Source: Fastidiosipila sp. (lineage in GTDB: Bacteria > Bacillota > Clostridia > Saccharofermentanales > DTU023). Taken from it: DNA of 44,820 bases. The translations under genes and the position numbers were made by a program. Below, in pieces: positions 114 to 40,947 of this stretch (its first letter is position 1; each line of letters starts with the position of its first letter). The stretch is from contig DUQI01000059.1 in assembly GCA_012837885.1 (NCBI GenBank), positions 1-44,820 on the forward strand, in the 5' to 3' direction. Under the pieces are notes generated by a model. The model was not told the DNA's origin, did no database searches, and saw only the letters and a list, made by a program, of their open reading frames with translations.

Positions 114-1166
114 ATGGAAAAATATCAGTGGCAGGAAAGACGGATTACGCTCGGCCGGAAAGATACGCCGCTCGAGCGGCTCGAGAACTTGGAACAGCAT
201 GTCGGTTATCAGGGATTGTGGATCAAGCGCGACGACCTGAACGATCTCGCGCTCTCCGGAAACAAAGTGAGAAAGCTGGAGTTTTTCGCTTATGAAGCGG
301 TCGAAGCCGGCAGCTCGGTATTGCTGACATTTGGCGGACCGCAGACCAATCACGGCCGTTTAACCGTGGCGGCCGCCCGCAGGCTCGACATGCAACCGGT
401 ACTCATTTTGGATGGACAAGAACCGGATCGTTTCAGCGGGAACCTTGTGCTCGATCTTTTGATGGGCGCCGATATTCGCTTTCGCGGTGACGTCAGTCGT
501 GAAGAGATGGCGGCGCGCGTGATCGAGGAGTATGAGTCCAAAGGACATATTGTCTACGTCATTCCACTCGGCGGCAGCAATGCGACCGGAGTACTCGGCT
601 ATGTCCAGATGATGCTCGAGCTGAAAGAGCAGATGAAGGAAAAAGACATAACGCCGGCGCATATCTATCTCGCAGTCGGCTCGGCCGGTATGCTGGCCGG
701 CACCGTCCTCGGTGCGAAATTGATCGGGCTCGAGACGAAGATCCACGGCATCCCTGTATTGGAAGCAGATGCCGCCGATCTGAAAGCACTCACCGTCAGG
801 CTGGCAGCTGAGGCGAGAGAGCGGTTCGATATCGCTTCTCAGCCGGTCACCGAGGCGGATTTCTCAATCGATCTCGGCCCGTCGGATCACCGTTATTTCG
901 GTGCAGGGTACAATCTGCCCGATCCGTATACGATCGATACGATCGAGCGTTTTGCCAGATACGAAGGCATCTTCCTCGATCCATGTTATTCAGGAAAAGC
1001 CGGACGCGCCTACCTCGAGCAAGCGGCGTCGGGATCGATAGGTGGCGAGCCGATCCTCCTGATACATAGCGGCGGGGTTCCGGCGTTATGGACCGATGAG
1101 CATTTATCCGCCATGCAGGGCAGACTGAAGGATCTATCGGCGGCAAATCGCGACAGTGAAAGCTAG
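114..1166 (+). CDS. D-cysteine desulfhydrase / ACC deaminase family PLP enzyme
   Basis: A 350-residue fold-type II PLP enzyme. The family breaks down D-cysteine to pyruvate, H2S and ammonia, or deaminates 1-aminocyclopropane-1-carboxylate, in the cytoplasm. The PLP lysine motif GNKVRKLE places the Schiff-base lysine at about residue 51, following the WIKRDDLN segment. The cofactor and substrate stretch GGPQTNHGRLTVAAA follows at about 75-90, and a phosphate-binding region with AVGSAGMLAGT lies mid-protein. The C-terminal CYSGKAGRAY segment is typical of D-cysteine desulfhydrases. The ATG at 114 follows AAGGAGAAAG. I cannot separate desulfhydrase from deaminase specificity by eye; desulfhydrase is more common in such bacteria. 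The gene is complete and looks functional. Confidence 0.8.
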   Translation: MEKYQWQERRITLGRKDTPLERLENLEQHVGYQGLWIKRDDLNDLALSGNKVRKLEFFAYEAVEAGSSVLLTFGGPQTNHGRLTVAAARRLDMQPVLILDGQEPDRFSGNLVLDLLMGADIRFRGDVSREEMAARVIEEYESKGHIVYVIPLGGSNATGVLGYVQMMLELKEQMKEKDITPAHIYLAVGSAGMLAGTVLGAKLIGLETKIHGIPVLEADAADLKALTVRLAAEARERFDIASQPVTEADFSIDLGPSDHRYFGAGYNLPDPYTIDTIERFARYEGIFLDPCYSGKAGRAYLEQAASGSIGGEPILLIHSGGVPALWTDEHLSAMQGRLKDLSAANRDSES

Positions 1167-29358: not shown

Positions 29359-30972
29359 TTGCGTTCCGATCTGAAAAATGAAGGTCAAAAGCCTCTGTCA
29401 AATAAACCGCATGCGCTGATCATTGGAGCCGGACCGGCTGGATTGACGGCCGCCTATCAGCTGCTGAAAGAGGGCCAATACGAGGTCACGGTACTGGAGG
29501 CCAGCCCGTATATCGGCGGCATCTCGCGCACGGCAAAACATAACGCTAATCACATCGATATTGGCGGACATCGTTTCTTTTCAAAAAGCGATGAAGTAAA
29601 CCGCCTGTGGCAGGAGTTGATGCCGCTTCAAGGCAAACCATCGTACGATGACAAGGTCCTCGGCGTGCAAAAGGACTTTTCCACCGGCGGCCCGGACCCG
29701 GAAGTATCGGATCAAGTGATGCTGCTACGAAACCGTGTATCGAGAATTTACTACCTCGGATCGTTTTTCGATTATCCGATCAGTATTAAATGGAAGACGT
29801 TTAAAAACCTGGGCTTCGGCCGTACGTTGAAAGCGGGTTTCGGCTACATCGCCGCCGCCGTTTTCAAAAGACCGGAACACTCTCTAGAAGATTTTTATAT
29901 CAATCGGTTTGGCAAACCGCTCTATGCCATGTTTTTTGAAGACTATACGACGAAGGTGTGGGGAAGACATCCGTCCGAGATTGCGGCGTCTTGGGGAGCT
30001 CAGCGGGTCAAGGGGCTGTCCTTGCTGAAGACGATCACGAGCGCACTGACAAAACCGTTCAGACGTTCCAAAGAAAAACTCGAAACATCCCTGATCGACG
30101 CTTTTCACTACCCGAAAAAAGGACCGGGGCAGTACTATGAGACGATGGCCGAAGCGATCGAACGTCTCGGCGGGCGGGTACTTCTGGAACACGAAGTGAC
30201 ACGCGTCGAGTTAAATGACGATCGCTCGATTGCCTCAGTCGAAGCGACGAAGGCGGATGGCTCGCGTGTGTCGTTTACGTCCGATGCCTATTTCTCCTCG
30301 ATGCCGATCAAGGATTTATTTCTCGCCTTTACCGGCAAAGCGGCACCGCATGAGCCGCTGCGCCAACTGGCCGCCAAACTTCCTTACCGCGATTTCATGA
30401 CGGTCGGTCTGCTGGTCGAACGTCTGAAGCTTAAAAGTGAGACGAACATACCGACACTCGGGGACATCGTTCCTGACAACTGGATTTACATTCAGGAGCG
30501 ATCGGTGCGGCTCGGACGTCTCCAGATATTTAATAACTGGTCTCCCTATCTTGTGACCGACCCCGAAAAGTACGTCTGGATCGGGCTCGAGTATTTTTGT
30601 GACGAAGGCGATCAGTACTGGCAGATGGACGATCAGGCGTTCATCGATTTTGCGACGAAAGAGCTCGCTTCGATCGGGATTATCGATCAGCAAGACGTGC
30701 GCGATGCGGTGCGCATCCGCGTCAAAAAAGCGTATCCGGCGTATTTTGGCGTCTATGACCGCTTTGCCGAGATGAAAGATTACTTACTCGGCGTGTCGAA
30801 TCTCTATTGCATCGGTAGAAACGGTCAGCACCGCTACAACAATATGGATCACTCGATGCTCACCTCGTTGCGCGCTGTCGACGTCTTGATGGGAAGGGCG
30901 ACGCAGGACGATCTGTGGAACGTCAACGCAGAACGTGAATACCATGAGACGAATAAGGAAGGCGAGAAGTGA
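29359..30972 (+). CDS. FAD-dependent oxidoreductase, UDP-galactopyranose-mutase/amine-oxidase-like
   Basis: A 537-residue flavoprotein. The Rossmann start is IIGAGPAGLTAAYQLL with Glu at the end of the second strand (VLEAS), then GGISRTAKHNANHIDIGGHRFFSK, where GGHRFF is typical of the protoporphyrinogen-oxidase/UDP-sugar-mutase-like branch found in glycan clusters. The C-terminal GRNGQHRYNNMDHSMLT contacts FAD. It likely modifies or rearranges a nucleotide or lipid-linked sugar. The TTG start has AGGGGG upstream and lies 11 bases after gtrA. Its TGA overlaps the next GTG. The exact reaction is not predictable. Confidence 0.78.
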   Translation: MRSDLKNEGQKPLSNKPHALIIGAGPAGLTAAYQLLKEGQYEVTVLEASPYIGGISRTAKHNANHIDIGGHRFFSKSDEVNRLWQELMPLQGKPSYDDKVLGVQKDFSTGGPDPEVSDQVMLLRNRVSRIYYLGSFFDYPISIKWKTFKNLGFGRTLKAGFGYIAAAVFKRPEHSLEDFYINRFGKPLYAMFFEDYTTKVWGRHPSEIAASWGAQRVKGLSLLKTITSALTKPFRRSKEKLETSLIDAFHYPKKGPGQYYETMAEAIERLGGRVLLEHEVTRVELNDDRSIASVEATKADGSRVSFTSDAYFSSMPIKDLFLAFTGKAAPHEPLRQLAAKLPYRDFMTVGLLVERLKLKSETNIPTLGDIVPDNWIYIQERSVRLGRLQIFNNWSPYLVTDPEKYVWIGLEYFCDEGDQYWQMDDQAFIDFATKELASIGIIDQQDVRDAVRIRVKKAYPAYFGVYDRFAEMKDYLLGVSNLYCIGRNGQHRYNNMDHSMLTSLRAVDVLMGRATQDDLWNVNAEREYHETNKEGEK

Positions 30973-32702
30973 AGAAAGGACGCCTCGAGCACTGGTTCGG
31001 CAGAGAGCGCATCATTCAGTATGTGCTCATTTTGCTCGCCCTGATTCCGCCTTTGTACTATATTTTCGGTCCGCTCGAAGGGCTCTTGCATTCCGATTTT
31101 ACGGACACGATCTACTGGGCGAAAACCAGCGTCGAGTCTGGCCGCATGCTCGATCCGAATTTCGCTTACGCCGGGATTTTGCCGTTCGGTGCTAATCTCT
31201 GGTATATCCCGCTTTTGCTGATGTTTGGACTGACGATGACGGTTCAGAAGATCGGGCTCGTCATCTTCTTGCTTTTGTTTGTCTTCGCCATCTGCTTTGT
31301 AGGGAAAACGCTCGGACTCTCGCCGATCTGGCGGGGACTTACCGTATTTGTCATTACGCTCGGGTTGTCCCAGAGTGAAAAGACGCTCGAGATCATGTGG
31401 GGGCATGTGATCTATTACAGTCTCGGTGCCCTTCTTTACTTTCTCGGTCTCGCCCTGATGATACGAAGCAGCGGTTTTTTCAGTGAACGCTTTGCTCCTG
31501 GAGACGCTCAATACTCGGTATTATATGCCGCTTCAGGCCGCAGAAGACTTCTTTATTTCATCTTATTCATGCTATTGACGATCGGGACGGGCACGAACGG
31601 CTTTCAGATGATGGCGATGTACATGCTGCCGCTTGCCGGTGCGCTTGTCCTGGAGCGGTTGTTTGAGAGAAGAAGCCAGCTCCACGACCCGATCACGAAG
31701 GATGTCGTCTGGCAGGTGCTCGCCATGATATTTGCGACGTTTGTCGGCGTCGTCTTACTCGTCATCATGCGGCGCGGCGGCGTCCGTGCGCCTTACGCAC
31801 ACCTTTATTCGATGTACAGTGAAACGGCGAGGTGGGGGGATAACGCCGGTCGTCTGCTACCGTCCTTGTATCGTCTGTTCGACCTGAATCCTCAATCCAA
31901 CGACCTGATCTTCAATCCGCTGACCCTGCATATTCCGTTGAAGCTGGCCGCGATCGCCTTGATCATTGTCGTGCCGATCATCTACACGAGAAAGTTTGAT
32001 GCACGCCCGCGCGCGTTGCGGCTCGTCATTTTGGCACACTGGATTCAAACAGCCATCTTGCTTTACACTTTTGTCTTCGGCCTGATGTCTTCCGCACCGT
32101 GGCGTCTCGTGCCGTTGATTATCAGCTCCTTATTCATCTGCATGCTGGCTGTCCATGAATGGCTTACGAAGAGAAAAAAACATGAAACGACGGTGCGCTA
32201 TCGTCTGGCTCATATCTCGCTCACTATTTTGCTCGTCTTCTCCTTATTCGGTGCCTTGAAGATTTTCTCCTATTCTCCCGACTATCAGGCGAATCCGCAT
32301 CTTCATACGTTGAAAACGGTACTTGAAGAAAGAGAACTAAGACACGGCTACGCCTCGTTTTGGCATGCACAGGCGATCAATCTGTTAAGTGACGATCGGA
32401 TCAAGATCCGGACGGTAGAACCGACGGAAAACGGTATTGTAAAACGACACTATCAGACGAGATCGAACTGGTTCGAAGATCAACCGGGGGTGGACCGTTA
32501 TTTTCTGGCACTCGCCTGGCATGAGCTCGCGGCACTCGAATCGGCTGGGCAGTTGGAACATGTCCTGGACGGTGTGATCGACAGCTTTGACACGGATCAC
32601 TACACCGTCTATATCTATCCGTTTAACATCATGACGCATCCGCCGGCCGAAGTATCTCCAGAGCCCACGGTCGAAGACAAGACGGAAGCGACTATTCCAT
32701 AG
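30969..32702 (+). CDS. Polytopic GT-C glycosyltransferase-like membrane protein
   Basis: A 577-residue membrane protein with about ten helices. The first extracytoplasmic loop has HSDFTDTIYWAKTSVESGRMLDPNFAYAGILPFGANLW, an acidic DFTD site followed by the usual GT-C style pattern, then helices to about residue 410 and an extracytoplasmic C-terminal domain of about 160 residues ending in a Pro/Glu tail. In GtrABC systems the third gene is such a transferase, which moves the flipped sugar onto its acceptor outside the membrane. The GTG start overlaps the flavoprotein stop as GTGA. It overlaps the 3' end of the convergent flavin gene by 11 bases. Family inferred by topology and context. Confidence 0.65.
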   Translation: MKKGRLEHWFGRERIIQYVLILLALIPPLYYIFGPLEGLLHSDFTDTIYWAKTSVESGRMLDPNFAYAGILPFGANLWYIPLLLMFGLTMTVQKIGLVIFLLLFVFAICFVGKTLGLSPIWRGLTVFVITLGLSQSEKTLEIMWGHVIYYSLGALLYFLGLALMIRSSGFFSERFAPGDAQYSVLYAASGRRRLLYFILFMLLTIGTGTNGFQMMAMYMLPLAGALVLERLFERRSQLHDPITKDVVWQVLAMIFATFVGVVLLVIMRRGGVRAPYAHLYSMYSETARWGDNAGRLLPSLYRLFDLNPQSNDLIFNPLTLHIPLKLAAIALIIVVPIIYTRKFDARPRALRLVILAHWIQTAILLYTFVFGLMSSAPWRLVPLIISSLFICMLAVHEWLTKRKKHETTVRYRLAHISLTILLVFSLFGALKIFSYSPDYQANPHLHTLKTVLEERELRHGYASFWHAQAINLLSDDRIKIRTVEPTENGIVKRHYQTRSNWFEDQPGVDRYFLALAWHELAALESAGQLEHVLDGVIDSFDTDHYTVYIYPFNIMTHPPAEVSPEPTVEDKTEATIP

Positions 32703-33267
32703 CCTTTTGCCACTTCAGCTCCTCACCCGTTGAGCTGAACTGTTTTCTTTTTGCCGTGATCGACTCGATCTTGACCTCAAATACATCGGTCTTTTTAGCC
32801 CCCGAAGCGAAAGCCGCTTCAAAATAGGCCATCTTATCCGGTGTGTACTTTTCGGAGATCAGGTGCAACGCCTCTTTGAACAACGCAGGCTCGCGCTCGC
32901 GATCGAGGAGGCGAATCGTGCCGACGACAATGGCTGACCGGTATTCAGTAGTAAAAACCTTGCTGAGTAACGTGTCGGCGCGACCGTCTCTGACCTCGGA
33001 TGCCAGCGCTTTTTCCGAGAAAAGATCGGGCACCTTGGCATGTCCGACGAACACGATCCTGACTGGCGTGTGGTTCCTGAACAACTCATGTTTTTTGCCG
33101 GATCTCGCCGCATGAAAAAAGAGAAGGTCGTCAGACCGAACGATCGACAACGGGACGGCATAAGGCACCTCGCTATCCGAATCGTTTATCGACAACGTAC
33201 CGAACGGCGCTTCATCGATCACGCTAAGTCCGAATGCTTCGGACATCTCTCTGTCTTTTCTTCGCAT
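32692..33267 (-). CDS. Pyridoxamine 5'-phosphate oxidase-family flavin protein (NimA-like)
   Basis: A 191-residue split-barrel protein. The pattern APFGTLSINDSDSEVPYAVPLSIVRSDDLLFFHAARSGKKHELFRNHTPVRIVFVG is that of FMN-binding pyridoxamine-oxidase-like proteins of the NimA branch, where the HxAxxGKKxExLR stretch binds the flavin phosphate. TEYRSAIVVGTIRLLDRE gives the dimer strands. Members reduce nitro compounds or act as general flavin reductases. The ATG at 33267 has AAGGGG with good spacing. It ends inside the convergent glycosyltransferase-like gene. The exact activity is open. Confidence 0.82.
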   Translation of the reverse strand: MRRKDREMSEAFGLSVIDEAPFGTLSINDSDSEVPYAVPLSIVRSDDLLFFHAARSGKKHELFRNHTPVRIVFVGHAKVPDLFSEKALASEVRDGRADTLLSKVFTTEYRSAIVVGTIRLLDREREPALFKEALHLISEKYTPDKMAYFEAAFASGAKKTDVFEVKIESITAKRKQFSSTGEELKWQKAME

Positions 33268-33601: not shown

Positions 33602-35281
33602 TCAGCGCCGATAGCGTTCGAAGAACGTCTTGGAAAGCGACGGGCTGTCCAGAGTCTGACCTGCCTGCAACTCGGCAATGCGTGACAAAATGGCTTGCCC
33701 CAGAGGCAGATCGTCGTAGATCGCATACATGTTAAAGAAGCGTTCCAGCGAATAGCTTGACTCTCTCGCCGCTTTGGCTACATCGGTCAGGAAATGGCGA
33801 CTGTTCGGCAGCGCAATCTCGGAGATCAGGGGGATGTCTCCCCAGACCATACGGTTTGGTCCAAGATCCGGTCGGTTTTCCCGCCGCCCCAAGCGTGCCG
33901 GGATCAGGTTGCCGAATGCGTAAAGGCGGTCTTCTAACTGAATGCAAAGGTCACTCAGGGCTTTGGCGACGGCATTTCTGGGATAGGCAAACTGGAGCGT
34001 AATCCAGCCGTGATAGTAAAGATACGAACTCGCTCTGGTGCGAATCAAGGTCTGAATCTGTTCCGTCGGTCCGCGCTTCGAGAGCGTGGCGAGTGTCGGA
34101 AACAAGACGGCAAGATCTTTGTAGTTTAAGCGGTAGGCCAGCTCATGCAGACGTTCCGGGGTATCGGCGACTTTCAACTGTGCCATCAGCCATTGATAAT
34201 TGACCTGCTGACCGTCCGTCTGCATCTCGCGTGGCAATGGCAGAGTATGTTTGGCAAAATCTCTCGCTTCGGCAAATGTCTTATACCGTAAAACAGGACG
34301 GACAGGAGCGGCCGGTGCAGGTGGTTCTTGGTTTTCTTCCGCCGCTTTCACTTCCGGTTCGTCTGCTTCAACCATATGTTCAGCGTCGTCCGACTCGTCA
34401 TCCGTGCCTGCCGGTTCAGCATTGGCGACGGCTGCCGCGGCGCGCTGTATGACGGACTCGACAAACAGTTCTTCAGGCGCCTCTTCTGAACCCGGCTCCT
34501 CGTCTTCAGGCGTCTCGGATGGTAGCGCCATCGGTTCGACGTTTAGACGCACCGAGCGCACGCCGGGCGCGATCTGGGTCGATTCATGCCGAATGCGAGA
34601 GATCATTTCGTAGATATTCTCTTCCGACTCTAAAGGACTCGATACGTCCGGTTCGGCTACTCCATCTTCTTCCTCAACCTTTTCTTCAGAAGTAGTATCA
34701 TCAACGTCTTCGATACGTTCATCTGGCAGCTGATCAGAGCTTTCATCCAAAAGTTCATCGGAGTCTTCATCTGAAGGTTCATCAGGCGTCTCTTCATCAG
34801 CTTCCGGCGTTGCCTCGCTTATATCTTCAGCAGGATCAATTGAGGTAAATTTGTCTGCGTCTGCGTCTGTATCTGTATCCACCACTGACTCAGACTGTAA
34901 TTCTGTTTCTGCTTCTTTATCTGTTTCTGTATCTGCTACTGGCTCAGACTCTAATTCTGAATCTGATTCTGTTTCTGTTGTCGCGGCAGGCGTGACCACT
35001 TCATCTTCATCGCTCGTTTCGCTTACGGCTGGCGAATCTTCCATGGCGTTTTCAACGGTATCAGTCGGCCAGGTCAGATTTAGCGTTGCCCGGCGTATCG
35101 CTGCGCCTCGTTTCGGACGCATGAATGCCGTTTCATCGGGCATGCTTTCTTTTGTTTCCTCGGTCGGAGACTCGACCTTAGAAACATCCGCATCAGCTTC
35201 TATGATGGCGTTTTCCCAGTTGTTATCGGTTTCGTCTATGACCGGCGTATCCGGTGTTTTCCGATCAGGATCGGTCATCAA
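33602..35281 (-). CDS. Large acidic protein with C-terminal EH_Signature-like helical domain (tentative)
   Basis: A 559-residue protein in two parts. Residues 1 to about 325 are low complexity and extremely acidic, rich in Asp, Glu, Ser and Thr, with an 18-residue tandem repeat at 109-144 and a few basic islands. Residues about 330-559 form a compact helical domain: YKTFAEARDFAKHTLPLP, WLMAQLKVADTPERLHELAYRL, YKDLAVLFPTLATL, SYLYYHGWITLQFAYPRNAVAKAL, then VWGDIPLISEIALP. Glu380 in LHELAYRL and His424 in YYHGWITL are 44 residues apart, and I suspect the EH_Signature domain known from ZorC. That match is by eye and unproven. There is no signal peptide. It is coupled by ATGA to the ZorA-like membrane gene, which strengthens the idea. 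Function unknown. Confidence 0.5.
   Translation of the reverse strand: MMTDPDRKTPDTPVIDETDNNWENAIIEADADVSKVESPTEETKESMPDETAFMRPKRGAAIRRATLNLTWPTDTVENAMEDSPAVSETSDEDEVVTPAATTETESDSELESEPVADTETDKEAETELQSESVVDTDTDADADKFTSIDPAEDISEATPEADEETPDEPSDEDSDELLDESSDQLPDERIEDVDDTTSEEKVEEEDGVAEPDVSSPLESEENIYEMISRIRHESTQIAPGVRSVRLNVEPMALPSETPEDEEPGSEEAPEELFVESVIQRAAAAVANAEPAGTDDESDDAEHMVEADEPEVKAAEENQEPPAPAAPVRPVLRYKTFAEARDFAKHTLPLPREMQTDGQQVNYQWLMAQLKVADTPERLHELAYRLNYKDLAVLFPTLATLSKRGPTEQIQTLIRTRASSYLYYHGWITLQFAYPRNAVAKALSDLCIQLEDRLYAFGNLIPARLGRRENRPDLGPNRMVWGDIPLISEIALPNSRHFLTDVAKAARESSYSLERFFNMYAIYDDLPLGQAILSRIAELQAGQTLDSPSLSKTFFERYRR
34850..34957 (-). repeat. 54-base tandem repeat in the acidic region
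   Basis: Two adjacent copies encode ELESEPVADTETDKEAET and ELQSESVVDTDTDADADK, 18 residues each. They lie in a wider Asp/Glu/Ser/Thr-rich tract dominated by TCT, TCA and TCTG-type codons on the plus strand, a likely site of slippage and length change. Confidence 0.7.
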
Positions 35282-36783
35282 TTCAAGCCTGGTCTCAGAG
35301 CCTGAGGCAGCGCGTCGACGGCTTCCCGGATCTCCGATGTAGTGAAGGTCAGACGTTCGACGACTTCAGCCAGTCCAGCATCATATTCGTCGAGCGATTT
35401 TCTGACAAAGTCTTCCGCCTCTTTGGTAAAGTGCGTCGTGTTGTCGGAGATGATTCGGCCGAGATCAGACAGACGATCAAGCTGCTGGTCGAGTCTTTCG
35501 AGCCAGATCGAACTCGCTTCGTCCTGACGCTCGGTGAGCTGGGCGGCGGCGAGCAATGCCTTGCTCGATTCACCGACACTCGTGTCGAGCCGGATTGCGT
35601 AGTTTTGCAGCTGTGCGGCCAACTGATTGATATGTGCCGCCAGGTCGGCTTCCTCACCGGTGTAAAGTGCTTCCATCTTTTCTGTCGTGACACCGATCAG
35701 GGCGAGGTGGCCACGGATATCTTCGATCTCTGCCACCATATCTTCTTTCGCCTTGGCCAAAAGCGCCAGTGATTCTTTAATCTGGTCGTTGATCTCGATA
35801 TTTTGTTGACGTGACGTCTCGAGCACTTCGACCTGCGTTTCGATATACGTTTCAGCTGCCGACAGTTTCTCGTTCATGCCGGCCAGATGTCCCTGCAACG
35901 GTTCGAGATGCTCGGCGAGCGAGGCGCTGACACTTTCGGCGAATTTTTCAGCTAACGCTTCCATGCCGCGCTCCTGTCGGTTGGTGATCTCCGTCGACAG
36001 TGCGATGAGGGCGTCGCTCGATTCTCTGATCGGCGGTGAGATCTCCTTACTCATGATCTGTCGCACGCTGTTTTCGATGCCCTGCGAGAAATCACCGGAG
36101 GCCAGTCGATCGGCTGTCTCGTTAAAGCGGTCGAGCTGTGCTTTCATCTCACGATCATACTGTTGCATCTCGTTGATCAGGGAGGCGATGCCGGCTTTGT
36201 CGCGGAAGACGTTCAGCCTGGTCACGATCGCCGATGTGAAAAGCCCCGTCTCGTTGTTCAGTCGGGCGCGGATATTGTAGGTGACAAACCAGAGATAGGC
36301 GCCGAGCGCGAGTCCGGTCGCGAGAGGGAAGATTAAGACAGGTAGAACCTGCTGCGGCACGGCCGGAGGAATCGCCGTCAATGAGGCGGCGGCGCCGACC
36401 AGTCCGAATAGGCCGAGCAATAAGAAGAGTGCCGAAGGCCAATAGGAGATCGTGCGCGCCTCATCCGGCGCAGTGAGAGCATTCAGGTCGAAATACGTAT
36501 CGGGATCCGGCAGGTAGCGTCCGTCGAATTGTGCCTCGCCGTCCGCTTCGTAGATAGCGAGACGTTCGGCTAACTGGTCATTGGCCGATTCTCGCGGCAA
36601 GCGATTTCCTTCTTTCACTTCGGCCGCAGCCTCTGTCAGCGCCTCGGTTAAGTCAGCTTCGACCCGCTTCATGCGGTTGACATAGACGATCGCCAACACA
36701 ACCATAATGATCGGCAGGATAAGAACAAAGAGCCAGTGCACGGCATCCAAGCCAAAAAAACTGACAGTTTTCAATAAAAACAT
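35278..36783 (-). CDS. MotA/TolQ/ExbB/ZorA-like membrane protein with long coiled-coil tail
   Basis: A 501-residue protein. One helix at about 16-37, a cytoplasmic segment of about 77 residues, then two helices at about 115-137 and 146-168 repeat the ExbB topology. WPSALFLLLGLFGLVGAAASL matches the APLLGLLGTVxGL segment, and VLPVLIFPLATGLALGAYLWFVTYNI matches the ALxTTAxGLAVAIPxxxxYN segment of proton-channel subunits; the pore Thr of the third helix is kept as Thr156, the other is Val. Residues 180-501 are a long heptad-rich helical tail, as in ZorA of Zorya defence systems. The ATG at 36783 has GTGGAGG just upstream and is preferred over 36822. It should form an oligomeric ion channel. No ZorB/MotB peptidoglycan-binding partner is adjacent; the coupled acidic gene follows. 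Confidence 0.6.
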   Translation of the reverse strand: MFLLKTVSFFGLDAVHWLFVLILPIIMVVLAIVYVNRMKRVEADLTEALTEAAAEVKEGNRLPRESANDQLAERLAIYEADGEAQFDGRYLPDPDTYFDLNALTAPDEARTISYWPSALFLLLGLFGLVGAAASLTAIPPAVPQQVLPVLIFPLATGLALGAYLWFVTYNIRARLNNETGLFTSAIVTRLNVFRDKAGIASLINEMQQYDREMKAQLDRFNETADRLASGDFSQGIENSVRQIMSKEISPPIRESSDALIALSTEITNRQERGMEALAEKFAESVSASLAEHLEPLQGHLAGMNEKLSAAETYIETQVEVLETSRQQNIEINDQIKESLALLAKAKEDMVAEIEDIRGHLALIGVTTEKMEALYTGEEADLAAHINQLAAQLQNYAIRLDTSVGESSKALLAAAQLTERQDEASSIWLERLDQQLDRLSDLGRIISDNTTHFTKEAEDFVRKSLDEYDAGLAEVVERLTFTTSEIREAVDALPQALRPGLN

Positions 36784-36895: not shown

Positions 36896-36938
36896 AGGTC
36901 AAACCGTGCCGTTTGGCATAAGGAGTGACAGCGTTTTT

Positions 36939-38570
36939 ATGGCGACCAAGTACATATTCGTTACGGGCGGAGTCGTATCGGGACTCGGCAAGGGAATCAC
37001 AGCGGCGGCGATCGGCTGTCTGCTGAAAGCAAGAGGCCTCTCAGTCAGAAACCAGAAATTCGATCCTTACATCAATGTCAATCCGGCGCTCATGAATCCG
37101 ACGCAGCACGGGGAGATTTTCATTACCGAAGACGGTGCCGAGACCGATCTCGACATCGGTCATTACGAGCGGTTCACCGATGTCAACTTAAACGCCGAAT
37201 CCGACATCACCTCCGGCATGATCTATCTCGACGTGATCATGCGGGAACGTGCCGGCGGGTATCACGGTGGCACGGTTCAGGTCGTACCGCATATCATCAA
37301 TGAGATTAAATCGCATCTTTACACGATTGCCAGAACGCATGAGGTCGATGTCGTTATCTCCGAGATCGGCGGCACGGTCGGCGATATGGAAGGCCAGCCG
37401 TATCTCGAGGCGATCCGTCAGCTGTCCTACGAAGTCGGGCGCGAAAACTGCATGTTTATCCACGTCACTCTCTTACCGGTACTCGGCATGTCAGATGAGA
37501 TTAAGACGAAGCCGACCCAACACAGCGTACAAAAACTACTCTCCTTCGGGGTGCAGCCCGACGTGTTGGTCTGTCGTTCCGAATTGTCTTTGGACTTTTC
37601 GATCCGGGAGAAACTGGCGATGTTTTGCAACGTGCCGGTCAGCCGCGTGATCGAAAACCGTGATTGTGATTCGGTCTATGAACTGCCGATGATGTTCGAG
37701 GCGGATGGGCTGGCGAATGAAATCTGTCGCCATTTTAAAGTGGCGGAAGACGTCACGCCCGATCTGTCCGAGTGGGAGCATCTCGTGAGCTTAATGCGAA
37801 AACCGCGTCAGAAACTGCGCATCGCCTTGGTCGGAAAGTATGTCGAACTGCATGACGCCTACTACAGCGTGATCGAGGCGCTGACTCATGCCGGTATCCA
37901 CGGCGGCTACGAGCCGGAGATCAGTTGGATACAAAGTGAAGTGTTTGAGAACTGGCCGCGTGAGGAGTCGATCGATTTACTCGCGTCGCATCACGCCGTC
38001 TTGGTTCCGGGCGGCTTCGGTAACCGCGGCATGGAGGGCATGATTGTCGCCGCGAATATCGCGCGTACAAATAATATTCCGTTTTTCGGTATCGGACTCG
38101 GCATGCAGATGGCCGTCGTCGATATTGCTCGAGAAGAGGCCGGTTTCCCTGAAGCCGGTTCTGACGAAGCCGATCATTATGTCGATGACATCTTTTACTA
38201 CCCGGCCGGGAAACAGTCGATGGAAACGACGCCCTTTTCCGAGTGGCATATGCGTTCCGGCGCCTATGTGACGGTATTTGAACCGGACTCTTTGTTTCAA
38301 TCGCTATACGGTGCGAATCAGACGGTGGAACGGCATCATCACCGACGAGAGCTCAATCCGGCCTACCAGTCACCGCTCGTCGCCGCCGGTCTCGGCATAG
38401 AAGGTACCGATGAAGAAGGACTGCTGGTCAACGCCATCTCCTGGAAAGATCACCCGTTCTTTGTCGGTACACTCTACGAACCGCAGCTGATCTCGCGTCC
38501 GGTCAGACCTCATCCACTGTTCACGGCGTTTTTGCACGCCGCTGATGCTTATAGAAAGGAAACATCATGA
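36939..38570 (+). CDS. pyrG: CTP synthase with intact synthetase domain but dead glutaminase domain
   Basis: A 543-residue protein of full CTP synthase length. The synthetase domain is well kept: [17 protein letters not shown] (7-23), QKFDPYINV with Lys40, [43 protein letters not shown] and [10 protein letters not shown]. It aminates UTP to CTP using ATP. The C-terminal amidotransferase domain keeps PGGFGNRG and the fold, but the nucleophile of GICLGMQ is Gly386 (GIGLGMQ), and VQFHPEF is TLYEPQL, so His becomes Glu514 and Glu becomes Gln516. All three catalytic residues are lost, so it should depend on free ammonia. The start at 36939 has AAGGAG 13 bases upstream. It is coupled to guaB by ATGA. 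Confidence 0.85.
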
Positions 38571-40066
38571 CCCGCATATTTTCCGAACTGTCCCGTACCT
38601 TTTCCGAGTTTTTACTCTTACCGAATCTGACGGACGAACGCTGCGTACAAAGCCGCGTCGACCTGTCTACGCCACTCACCAAGTTTAAAAAAGGGGAAGA
38701 CCCGAAAATCACGCTGAATACGCCGTTGTTATCGGCGATCATGCAGAGCGTCTCGGACGATCAGATGGCGATCGCGCTGGCCAGAGAAGGCGGGCTCGCG
38801 TTTATCTTTGCCTCTCAGGCGATCGAGTCCCAGGCCAAGATGGTGCGCTCCGTCAAACGGTATAAAGCCGGCTTTGTGCCGAGCGACAGCAATGCCCGAC
38901 CTGATCAACTGCTGTCCGACGTCCTCGCGTTAAAAGCGAAAACGGGGCATTCGACTCTGCCGATTACCGAAGACGGCACACCGACTGGCAAGCTGGTCGG
39001 TATCGTGACCAGCCGTGACTACCGGGTCAGCCGGATGTCCGTCGATACGCCGATCCATACGTTCATGACGAAGCTGGAAGATCTCGTGATCGGTGAGGAA
39101 GGGATCACCTTGAGTGAGGCGAACGATATCATCTGGGATCATAAGCTGAATCAGCTGCCGATCGTCGACAAAAACGGTCACCTCGTCTCCCTGGTCTTCC
39201 GTAAAGACTATGACGAACATAAGAGCAATCCGAAAGAGATCCTGGACGAGAAAAAGCGCCTGATGACCGGTGCCGGTATCAATACGCGCGATTATGAAGC
39301 ACGCGTCCCGGCTCTGGTCGACGCCGGTGCCGACGTACTCTGTATCGATTCGTCGGACGGCTACTCCGTGTGGCAAAAACAGACGCTCGAGTTTATCCGC
39401 AAGACGTATGGCGACGACATCTTGGTCGGTGCTGGAAATGTCGTCGATGCTGAAGGTTTCAATTATCTGGCAGACGCCGGCGCCGATTTTATCAAGGTCG
39501 GCATCGGCGGTGGTTCCATCTGTATTACGCGCGAACAAAAAGGTATCGGCCGCGGTCAGGCGTCCGCGATCATCGATGTGGCTGCCGCGCGTGACCGCTA
39601 TTTCGAAGAAAAAGGCGTCTACATCCCGATCTGTTCCGACGGCGGCATCGTGCTCGACTATCATATGACGCTCGCCCTGGCGATGGGGGCCGACCATCTG
39701 ATGCTCGGCCGGTATTTCGCCCGTTTCGACGAGAGCCCGACCAAACGGCTTTTGGTTAACGGCAACTACGTCAAGGAGTACTGGGGCGAAGGCTCGAACC
39801 GCGCACGAAACTGGCAGCGCTACGATCAGGGGGAAGCGAGCGGCCTGCACTTTGAAGAAGGCGTCGACGCCTATGTACCGTACGCCGGTTCTCTCAAAGA
39901 CAACCTCGAAACCAGCCTCAGCAAGGTCAAAGCGACGATGTGTTCGTGCGGCGCGATCAGCCTGCCGGAGCTTCGAAAAAAAGCGAGGTTGACGATCGTC
40001 TCGCCGACCTCTCTGGTTGAAGGCGGCGCACACGACGTGTACGCGAAACAAAGCGATCCGCGATGA
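38567..40066 (+). CDS. guaB: IMP dehydrogenase
   Basis: A 499-residue enzyme that oxidises IMP to XMP with NAD+, the committed step to GMP. The catalytic loop [20 protein letters not shown] carries Cys319 and belongs to the EQKGIGRGQ-type branch. The CBS pair lies at about 105-220 ([32 protein letters not shown]). The flap segment [16 protein letters not shown] follows near 405-420. The early loop reads [17 protein letters not shown] instead of the common MDTVT form, as in this branch. Its ATG overlaps the pyrG stop (ATGA), so CTP and GTP precursor enzymes are translated together. It looks fully active. Confidence 0.9.
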
Positions 40067-40140: not shown

Positions 40141-40947
40141 ATGAAAAAGACCCTAATATCGTTAGTCCTTATACTCACCTTGCTCACATCCGGTTTCGTA
40201 CTGGCTGCCGAAGAAGTCAGCGGTTTCGACCGGGTTGCGGAATCGCTCGGTATTGAGCTCAGCATTCTGGAAAGTGAAACATCTGAGGGAACCGCTCTGA
40301 AAACGATCTATGTGGAGACGACGGCCGAGGAAGTGAAAAACACGCTGACGGCTCTCAAAGCGGAACTTGAAGCGGTGAAAGAGACACTCGAACCTGCGCG
40401 GTATGTCTTTCTTCTGATCGACGCCGCCGGTGCACCGCTCTACGTCGTCAGTGTTGACCAGTCGGACGCTCCCTTGATCGAGCTTTCCGCCGCCGGCGAA
40501 GCAGGCACAGGTGACGATGGCGATGTCGAGATCGGCCAGACGTTTGCCACCAATACACTCGAATTCACATTGAACAGTGTCGAAATCGTCGATAAAGTGT
40601 TGCCGCCGGATACGTCCGGTTTCCATACATACTACGAAGCGGCTGAAGGCAAGCGCTATGTGTTTGTCGATCTCAACGTGAAAAACCTCGGTAAAGAAGA
40701 GATTAAATTCTCTGAACTTTACACCCCCACCTTGATCTACGACGATGGCTACACATACCGCGGTCAGATTCTGGTGTTGCGCGATCAGAAAAACTTCAGC
40801 TATGCGAACATCAATAACCTCGCGCCGCTCGCCAATGAATTCGCCGGCGTGATGTTTGAAGTACCGGAGGAAGTGGAGACGAGCGACAAAGCCGTCGTGA
40901 TCACGTTCATGGCCGGCGATTCGCTGTTCCGTTACCGCTACCGCTGA
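40141..40947 (+). CDS. Secreted DUF4352-type protein
   Basis: A 268-residue exported protein. The signal peptide has Lys-Lys, a hydrophobic core (LISLVLILTLLTSGFV) and a cleavage site near VLAAEE; there is no lipobox Cys. Residues 25-120 form a helical/strand region with a Lys/Glu-rich helix KNTLTALKAELEAVKETL. Residues about 135-265 match the immunoglobulin-like DUF4352 domain: IGQTFATNTLEFTLNSVEIVDKV, GKRYVFVDLNVKNLGKEEIKF, and the closing EFAGVMFEVPEEV. Role in the envelope unknown. CAGGAGGATTCATCTT precedes the ATG. It is likely a separate unit behind guaB. Confidence 0.72.
   Translation: MKKTLISLVLILTLLTSGFVLAAEEVSGFDRVAESLGIELSILESETSEGTALKTIYVETTAEEVKNTLTALKAELEAVKETLEPARYVFLLIDAAGAPLYVVSVDQSDAPLIELSAAGEAGTGDDGDVEIGQTFATNTLEFTLNSVEIVDKVLPPDTSGFHTYYEAAEGKRYVFVDLNVKNLGKEEIKFSELYTPTLIYDDGYTYRGQILVLRDQKNFSYANINNLAPLANEFAGVMFEVPEEVETSDKAVVITFMAGDSLFRYRYR

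What the first reader, a model, noticed from the sequence alone, without database searches (positions are those of the whole stretch)
33602..36783. Two-gene operon of a ZorA/ExbB-like channel protein and an acidic protein with a possible EH_Signature domain
The membrane protein has ExbB topology, both pore-helix motifs in recognisable form and a 320-residue helical tail as in ZorA. The coupled partner has a C-terminal helical domain with a Glu and a His 44 residues apart; as I recall, the ZorC signature residues are about 43 apart. No ZorB-type peptidoglycan-binding stator partner and no helicase or nuclease is adjacent. This may be a minimal or diverged Zorya-like, or other proton-driven, signalling or defence unit.
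Basis: partly seen in the sequence, partly recalled or inferred. Interest (0 to 1): 0.75.

Follow-up and report, generated by a model that had tools for sequence, protein, structure and literature searches.

The report
Zorya-like gene pair without its motor
Two linked genes in a family of anaerobic Clostridia are distant relatives of two parts (ZorA and ZorC) of the Zorya anti-phage machine, but they lack the rest of that machine, are inherited like ordinary cell genes, and have cousins inside type IV pilus operons, which points to a cellular job rather than phage defence.

Summary
The pair is real: A (35278-36783, minus; three membrane helices plus a ~315-residue helical tail) and B (33602-35278, minus; acidic N-terminus, conserved C-terminal ~230 residues), overlapping stop-to-start (TGATG). 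A is homologous to ZorA over its whole length, including the tail end (profile comparison 99.6%, score 189 against at most 19 for shuffles; best PDB matches are four ZorA entries). B is homologous to ZorC: full-length relatives align over 328 columns (99.0%), while the window's family keeps only the N-terminal half and has lost the EH_Signature region. The Ser/Thr ring on the third membrane helix is lost, and no ZorB or ZorD is adjacent. The pair is vertically inherited (31/33 genomes of the family, 55/98 of the order), beside housekeeping genes, without defence genes. Seven of seven relatives outside the order lie beside or inside type IV pilus genes. I favour a ZorA/ZorC-like module re-used as a static membrane scaffold-adaptor, ancestrally tied to type IV pili and standalone here. 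The homology is shown; the function is inferred. Zorya membership fails. New variant of a known kind.

The parts
35278..36783 (-). Gene A, ZorA-like membrane protein, 501 aa from the ATG at 36783 (ORF to 36822, 514 aa)
36667..36768 (-). A: first hydrophobic segment (residues 19-52, 514-aa numbering)
   Evidence: hydropathy; helix 5-72 in the AlphaFold model
36364..36444 (-). A: second membrane helix (residues 127-153)
   Evidence: aligned with ZorA TM2 (GILGTFxG), Thr replaced by Leu in the window
36280..36351 (-). A: third membrane helix (residues 158-181); ZorA TM3 Thr/Ser replaced by Pro/Leu
35281..36225 (-). A: ~315-residue helical cytoplasmic tail (residues 200-514)
   Evidence: profile match to the ZorA tail
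35305..35394 (-). A: conserved tail-end motif LDEYDAGLAEVVERLTFTTSEIREAVDALP, shared with genuine ZorA
   Evidence: alignment; residues 440-514 alone against ZorA score 73
33602..35278 (-). Gene B, ZorC-like protein, 558 aa from the ATG at 35278 (559 from the TTG)
34307..35281 (-). B: acidic, poorly conserved N-terminal region, residues 1-325 (105 D/E, 19 K/R)
33605..34294 (-). B: conserved domain, residues 330-559; matches ZorC residues 47-196 only; EH region absent
34010..34144 (-).
35276..35280 (-). TGATG overlap of A stop and B start, suggests translational coupling
36906..38570 (+). Neighbour: CTP synthase pyrG, divergent; guaB follows (38567-40066)
32692..33267 (-). Neighbour downstream: pyridoxamine 5'-phosphate oxidase-like protein, not conserved next to the pair

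Best explanation
The pair encodes a cell-resident module made of a ZorA-like membrane protein (A) and a ZorC-like partner (B), without ZorB and ZorD. A probably forms a ZorA/ExbB-type oligomer whose long helical tail projects into the cytoplasm; B probably docks on the tail through the alpha-helical domain it shares with the N-terminal half of ZorC, as ZorC is thought to be recruited by ZorAB. Because the ion-coordinating ring on TM3 is replaced by Pro and hydrophobic residues and no stator partner was found, it most likely works as a fixed membrane scaffold and adaptor, not as an ion-driven motor or a phage sensor. Its older form sits in type IV pilus operons, where it would organise or anchor the pilus machine at the membrane; the copy in this order split off, was inherited vertically beside housekeeping genes, and in the window's family B lost the EH region and gained an acidic N-terminus. 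SHOWN here: both homologies, the residue losses, the linkage, vertical inheritance, pilus neighbourhoods of relatives. INFERRED: oligomer, A-B docking, lack of ion flow, scaffold role, and that the pilus setting is the older one.
For: A vs ZorA profiles: prob 99.6, score 189.5 over 442 columns; 20 column shuffles at most 19.1, reversed 34.1; membrane part alone 61, tail end alone 73. Window's family alone vs ZorA: 146.7, shuffles at most 19.8. Foldseek: the four best PDB matches of the A model are ZorA (8qyd, 8qyh, 8qyk, 8qyy; probability 1.00), then ExbB/TolQ. B: full-length B vs ZorC prob 99.0, score 136.8, shuffles at most 19.8; a B profile finds a genuine ZorC in a ZorABCD-type operon at E 4.8e-11 in a whole genome; window-family B vs ZorC 47-196 score 54, shuffles at most 21.3. 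Pore: T131/T167/S168 -> L/P/L; Pro at T167 in 34 of 40. No MotB_plug match above cut-off in the genome. Vertical: 31/33, 14/23, 10/12, 0/30 genomes of four families; the B tree groups each family with 95-100% support. Pilus link: 7 of 7 loci outside the order (L127, L134-L136, L145-L147) with PilT, most also with PilB, PilD, PilM/N/O or pilins.
Against: The B model has no significant PDB match and does not hit the solved ZorC (8r68) among its 50 best; generic alpha-solenoids lead. The window's own genome has no long PilB-type ATPase hit, only one ~390-aa T2SSE protein, so a type IV pilus role is unlikely to be its present function there. Its neighbours differ between families, so context does not name the function. 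TM2 keeps a Ser or Thr in about half of the members (21 of 40), so some ion passage is not excluded. ZorB-like proteins outside the MotB_plug profile were not sought genome-wide. AlphaFold confidence for the tail is low.
Confidence: 0.5

Rival explanations
1. A reduced or diverged Zorya-like anti-phage system: A senses envelope stress from infection and B recruits an effector encoded elsewhere.
For: Clear homology of A to ZorA and of B to ZorC; genuine ZorABCD-type operons exist in the same phylum.
Against: Near-universal and vertical in the family (31/33), while genuine ZorC is rare in the phylum (4/348). Housekeeping neighbours, no defence genes. EH Glu and His not kept; EH region gone in the window's family. 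Zorya I needs every component, ZorB included (PMC11890865).
Confidence: 0.12
2. An ion-driven machine of the ExbB/TolQ kind that uses an unlinked partner helix in place of ZorB and transmits motion to B through the tail.
For: ExbB/TolQ/ZorA fold of the membrane part; Ser/Thr at the TM2 site in 21 of 40 members.
Against: TM3 Thr replaced by Pro in 34 of 40 and TM3 Ser by hydrophobic residues in most; no MotB_plug protein above cut-off in the genome; no small membrane partner conserved beside the pair. ExbD-type proteins were not sought genome-wide.
Confidence: 0.15
3. A general cell-envelope or division scaffold of this order unrelated in function to type IV pili; the pilus linkage of relatives is a separate specialisation.
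For: In the window's family most genomes lack a long PilB yet keep the pair; neighbours include ddl and a penicillin-binding protein in many loci and fatty-acid genes in others.
Against: Neighbours are inconsistent; the pilus-linked forms branch nearest the ZorC side of the B tree (deep forks partly weak), so the pilus setting looks older.
Confidence: 0.2

Closest known systems
Zorya type I anti-phage system (ZorABCD)
   Same: A is homologous to ZorA over membrane core, tail and tail end; full-length B relatives are homologous to ZorC over 328 columns
   Different: No ZorB, no ZorD; TM3 Ser/Thr ring lost; EH Glu/His not kept; vertical core-like inheritance; pilus or housekeeping neighbours
MotA/TolQ/ExbB ion-channel family (PF01618)
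   Same: Three membrane helices and ExbB/TolQ/ZorA fold in the model
   Different: No Pfam match for the window's A, and the family is not among those matched most by its relatives; no MotB/ExbD/TolR-type partner gene adjacent; pore residues changed
Type IV pilus operons of Bacillota
   Same: Homologous A-B pairs lie between or beside pilin, PilB and PilT genes in seven of seven out-of-order genomes
   Different: The window's pair is not near pilus genes and its genome shows no long PilB; A/B are not described as pilus parts in the papers found
EH_Signature domain (PF15611)
   Same: Full-length B relatives match it weakly at one place (E 0.02-0.07)
   Different: Below the curated cut-off; Glu is Asp in 14 of 14, His in 0 of 14; region absent in the window's B

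Membership tests
Zorya system | ZorA homologue with MotA-like core and long tail | tested here: met
Zorya system | ZorB with MotB-type plug and peptidoglycan-binding domain | tested here: not met
   not adjacent in the window or the relatives' loci; no MotB_plug match above cut-off in own genome. OmpA-domain search not run
Zorya system | Ser/Thr ring of ZorA facing the ZorB Asp (PMC11890865) | tested here: not met
   window L/P/L at T131/T167/S168; Pro at T167 in 34/40; TM2 site Ser/Thr in 21/40
Zorya type I | ZorC with EH_Signature (Glu and His) | tested here: not met
   homologous part present, but Glu to Asp 14/14, His 0/14 in full-length relatives; window's B stops before the region
Zorya type I | ZorD helicase in the operon | tested here: not met
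   no such gene beside the pair in the window; none recurring beside it in relatives
Zorya system | Anti-phage activity | not testable with these tools
   needs phage challenge
Zorya system | Patchy, defence-like distribution | tested here: not met
   31/33 in the family, family-wise monophyly
MotA/TolQ/ExbB family PF01618 | Profile match above cut-off | tested here: not met
MotA/TolQ/ExbB family PF01618 | ExbB-type fold and topology | tested here: met
   (monomer model only)
Type IV pilus machinery | Encoded with pilus genes | tested here: inconclusive
   7/7 out-of-order relatives yes; window and its family no

The most novel reading that the evidence does not exclude
A ZorA-ZorC core without a motor partner is an old module of type IV pilus machines in Bacillota, independent of defence, and gave rise to a standalone core-genome version in this order. 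Zorya type I and this module then share an ancestor in which ZorA and ZorC already worked as a pair; either could be the derived form.
Probability: 0.4. Interest if true: 0.8.

Novelty: new variant of a known kind. Interest (0 to 1): 0.6.

Why it matters
ZorA and ZorC are known as parts of a phage-defence motor. A vertically inherited ZorA/ZorC-like pair without stator and helicase, with cousins inside type IV pilus operons, would show that the ZorA-ZorC partnership has a life outside defence and would give a simple system in which to study tail-partner docking. It also makes the origin of Zorya testable and warns that defence finders with relaxed ZorA/ZorC models could mislabel such loci.

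Tried and rejected
Single-protein scan of genome contigs found no relative, and the broad alignment had no usable stretch; a family-level alignment worked. Pfam, NCBIfam and PADLOC on the window proteins gave only weak or coiled-coil matches, so profile-profile comparison was needed. Sequence profiles against the PDB: A drew mostly coiled-coil hits with ZorA at E 0.054, B none. ZorC relatives in plasmids: none. The B model against the PDB gave only generic helical repeats. Coiled-coil artefact for A vs ZorA was considered and rejected: reversed and shuffled profiles score far lower, and membrane part and tail end score separately. My first guess that the host was a Coriobacteriales member was dropped when named records came back. 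One flawed cut noted: the 'window 330-559 vs ZorC' comparison still held columns of longer relatives, so the family-only test replaces it. Papers: no report of a ZorA-ZorC pair without ZorB, or with pili, was found among the hits; the main Zorya structure paper in Nature was not held.

Full report
What is there. Two genes on the minus strand form a tight operon. A most likely starts at ATG 36783 behind GGAGG and ends at 35278; its stop overlaps B's ATG as TGATG. B ends at 33602. A has three hydrophobic segments and, in the AlphaFold model, a mostly confident membrane core (block means mostly 84-95 for residues ~31-200, with a dip to 69) followed by long helices of low confidence. B has an acidic first 325 residues (105 D/E, 19 K/R) that vary between relatives, and a conserved C-terminal domain.

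Who carries it. Named records of close relatives are anaerobic MAGs labelled mostly Clostridiaceae or Eubacteriales bacterium, Mageeibacillus sp., DTU023 and DTU032. With a B profile the pair's B is found in 31 of 33 genomes of the window's family, 14 of 23 and 10 of 12 of two other families, and 0 of 30 of a fourth. A and B are adjacent in nearly all loci read. In the window's family the pair is either divergent from pyrG-guaB-lysS or follows recG, an rsmD-type methyltransferase, ddl and sometimes a penicillin-binding protein; in the others it mostly follows fatty-acid genes and an M29 peptidase. No defence genes were seen there.

Kinship of A. Type I Zorya operons (ZorA, ZorB, ZorC, ZorD by size and order, with MotA_ExbB, OmpA and EH_Signature matches in those tested) were found in the same phylum and used as reference. 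A against ZorA: probability 99.6, score 189.5 over 442 columns, against at most 19.1 for 20 column shuffles and 34.1 for the reversed profile; the membrane part alone scores 61 and the tail end alone 73. The window's family alone scores 146.7. The tail end FDxxLAExxxRLxxTxxEIxxAVxxLP is visibly shared. Foldseek ranks four ZorA entries first, then ExbB and TolQ. The ZorA Ser/Thr pore positions are L, P, L in the window; TM3 carries Pro in 34 of 40 members, TM2 keeps Ser or Thr in 21 of 40.

Kinship of B. PADLOC ZorC matches 4 of 33 relatives (best E 2.6e-4). Full-length B relatives against ZorC: probability 99.0, score 136.8 over 328 columns, shuffles at most 19.8. A B profile finds a real ZorC in a ZorABCD-type operon at E 4.8e-11. 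The window's family alone still matches ZorC 47-196 with score 54 against at most 21.3. The ZorC signature Glu (E329 in the reference; residue 400 of 8r68 by counting) is Asp in 14 of 14 full-length B relatives and the His is absent in all. The window's B ends before that region. The B model finds no solved ZorC among its best matches; this is a real gap in the structural evidence.

The pilus link. Outside the order, seven genomes carry an A-B pair (L127, L134, L135, L136, L145, L146, L147); in all seven it lies beside or inside type IV pilus genes, with longer A (717-1059 aa). Pfam confirms prepilin peptidase, pilin, PilB with MshEN, PilT-type ATPase and PilM in the examples tested. Some genomes of the order hold a second, pilin-adjacent copy (L138, also L141 and L142 near pilin-like genes). 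In a B tree the standalone copies of the three families form one group, each family monophyletic, and the pilus-linked ones lie between them and ZorC (some deep forks are weak and long branches are flagged). No pilin motif was seen near the standalone loci inspected, and the window's genome has only one ~390-aa T2SSE protein.

Interpretation. The homologies and losses are shown. That A oligomerises, that B docks on its tail, that it conducts no ions and that it acts as a scaffold are inferences from Zorya knowledge (ZorA5:ZorB2 complex, Ser/Thr ring, tail needed for defence and proposed to recruit the effectors; PMC11890865). It fails the tests for being a Zorya system, but it may still use the ZorA-ZorC part of the mechanism.

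Noticed in passing
L134 7018-10361, L135 9061-13039, L146 8694-13152, L147 6044-10022: ZorA/ZorC-like pairs embedded in type IV pilus clusters of other Bacillota; no description of them as pilus genes was found.
   Followed up: partly
L138 7900-11774, L139 8115-9365, L140 781-4014: Second copies of the pair, or its B, in genomes of the order that also carry the standalone copy; one is next to a pilin gene.
   Followed up: partly
L068 8715-10337: A copy of A without a recognisable B next to it.
   Followed up: no
window 30969-32702 (+): 577-aa protein with no Pfam or NCBIfam family above cut-off, following a FAD amine-oxidase-like gene.
   Followed up: no
window 40141-40947 (+): DUF4352 protein between guaB and lysS.
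   Followed up: no
L123, L124, L125, L126, L137: ZorABCD-type operons in Bacillota, rare (4 of 348 genomes by ZorC search).
   Followed up: partly
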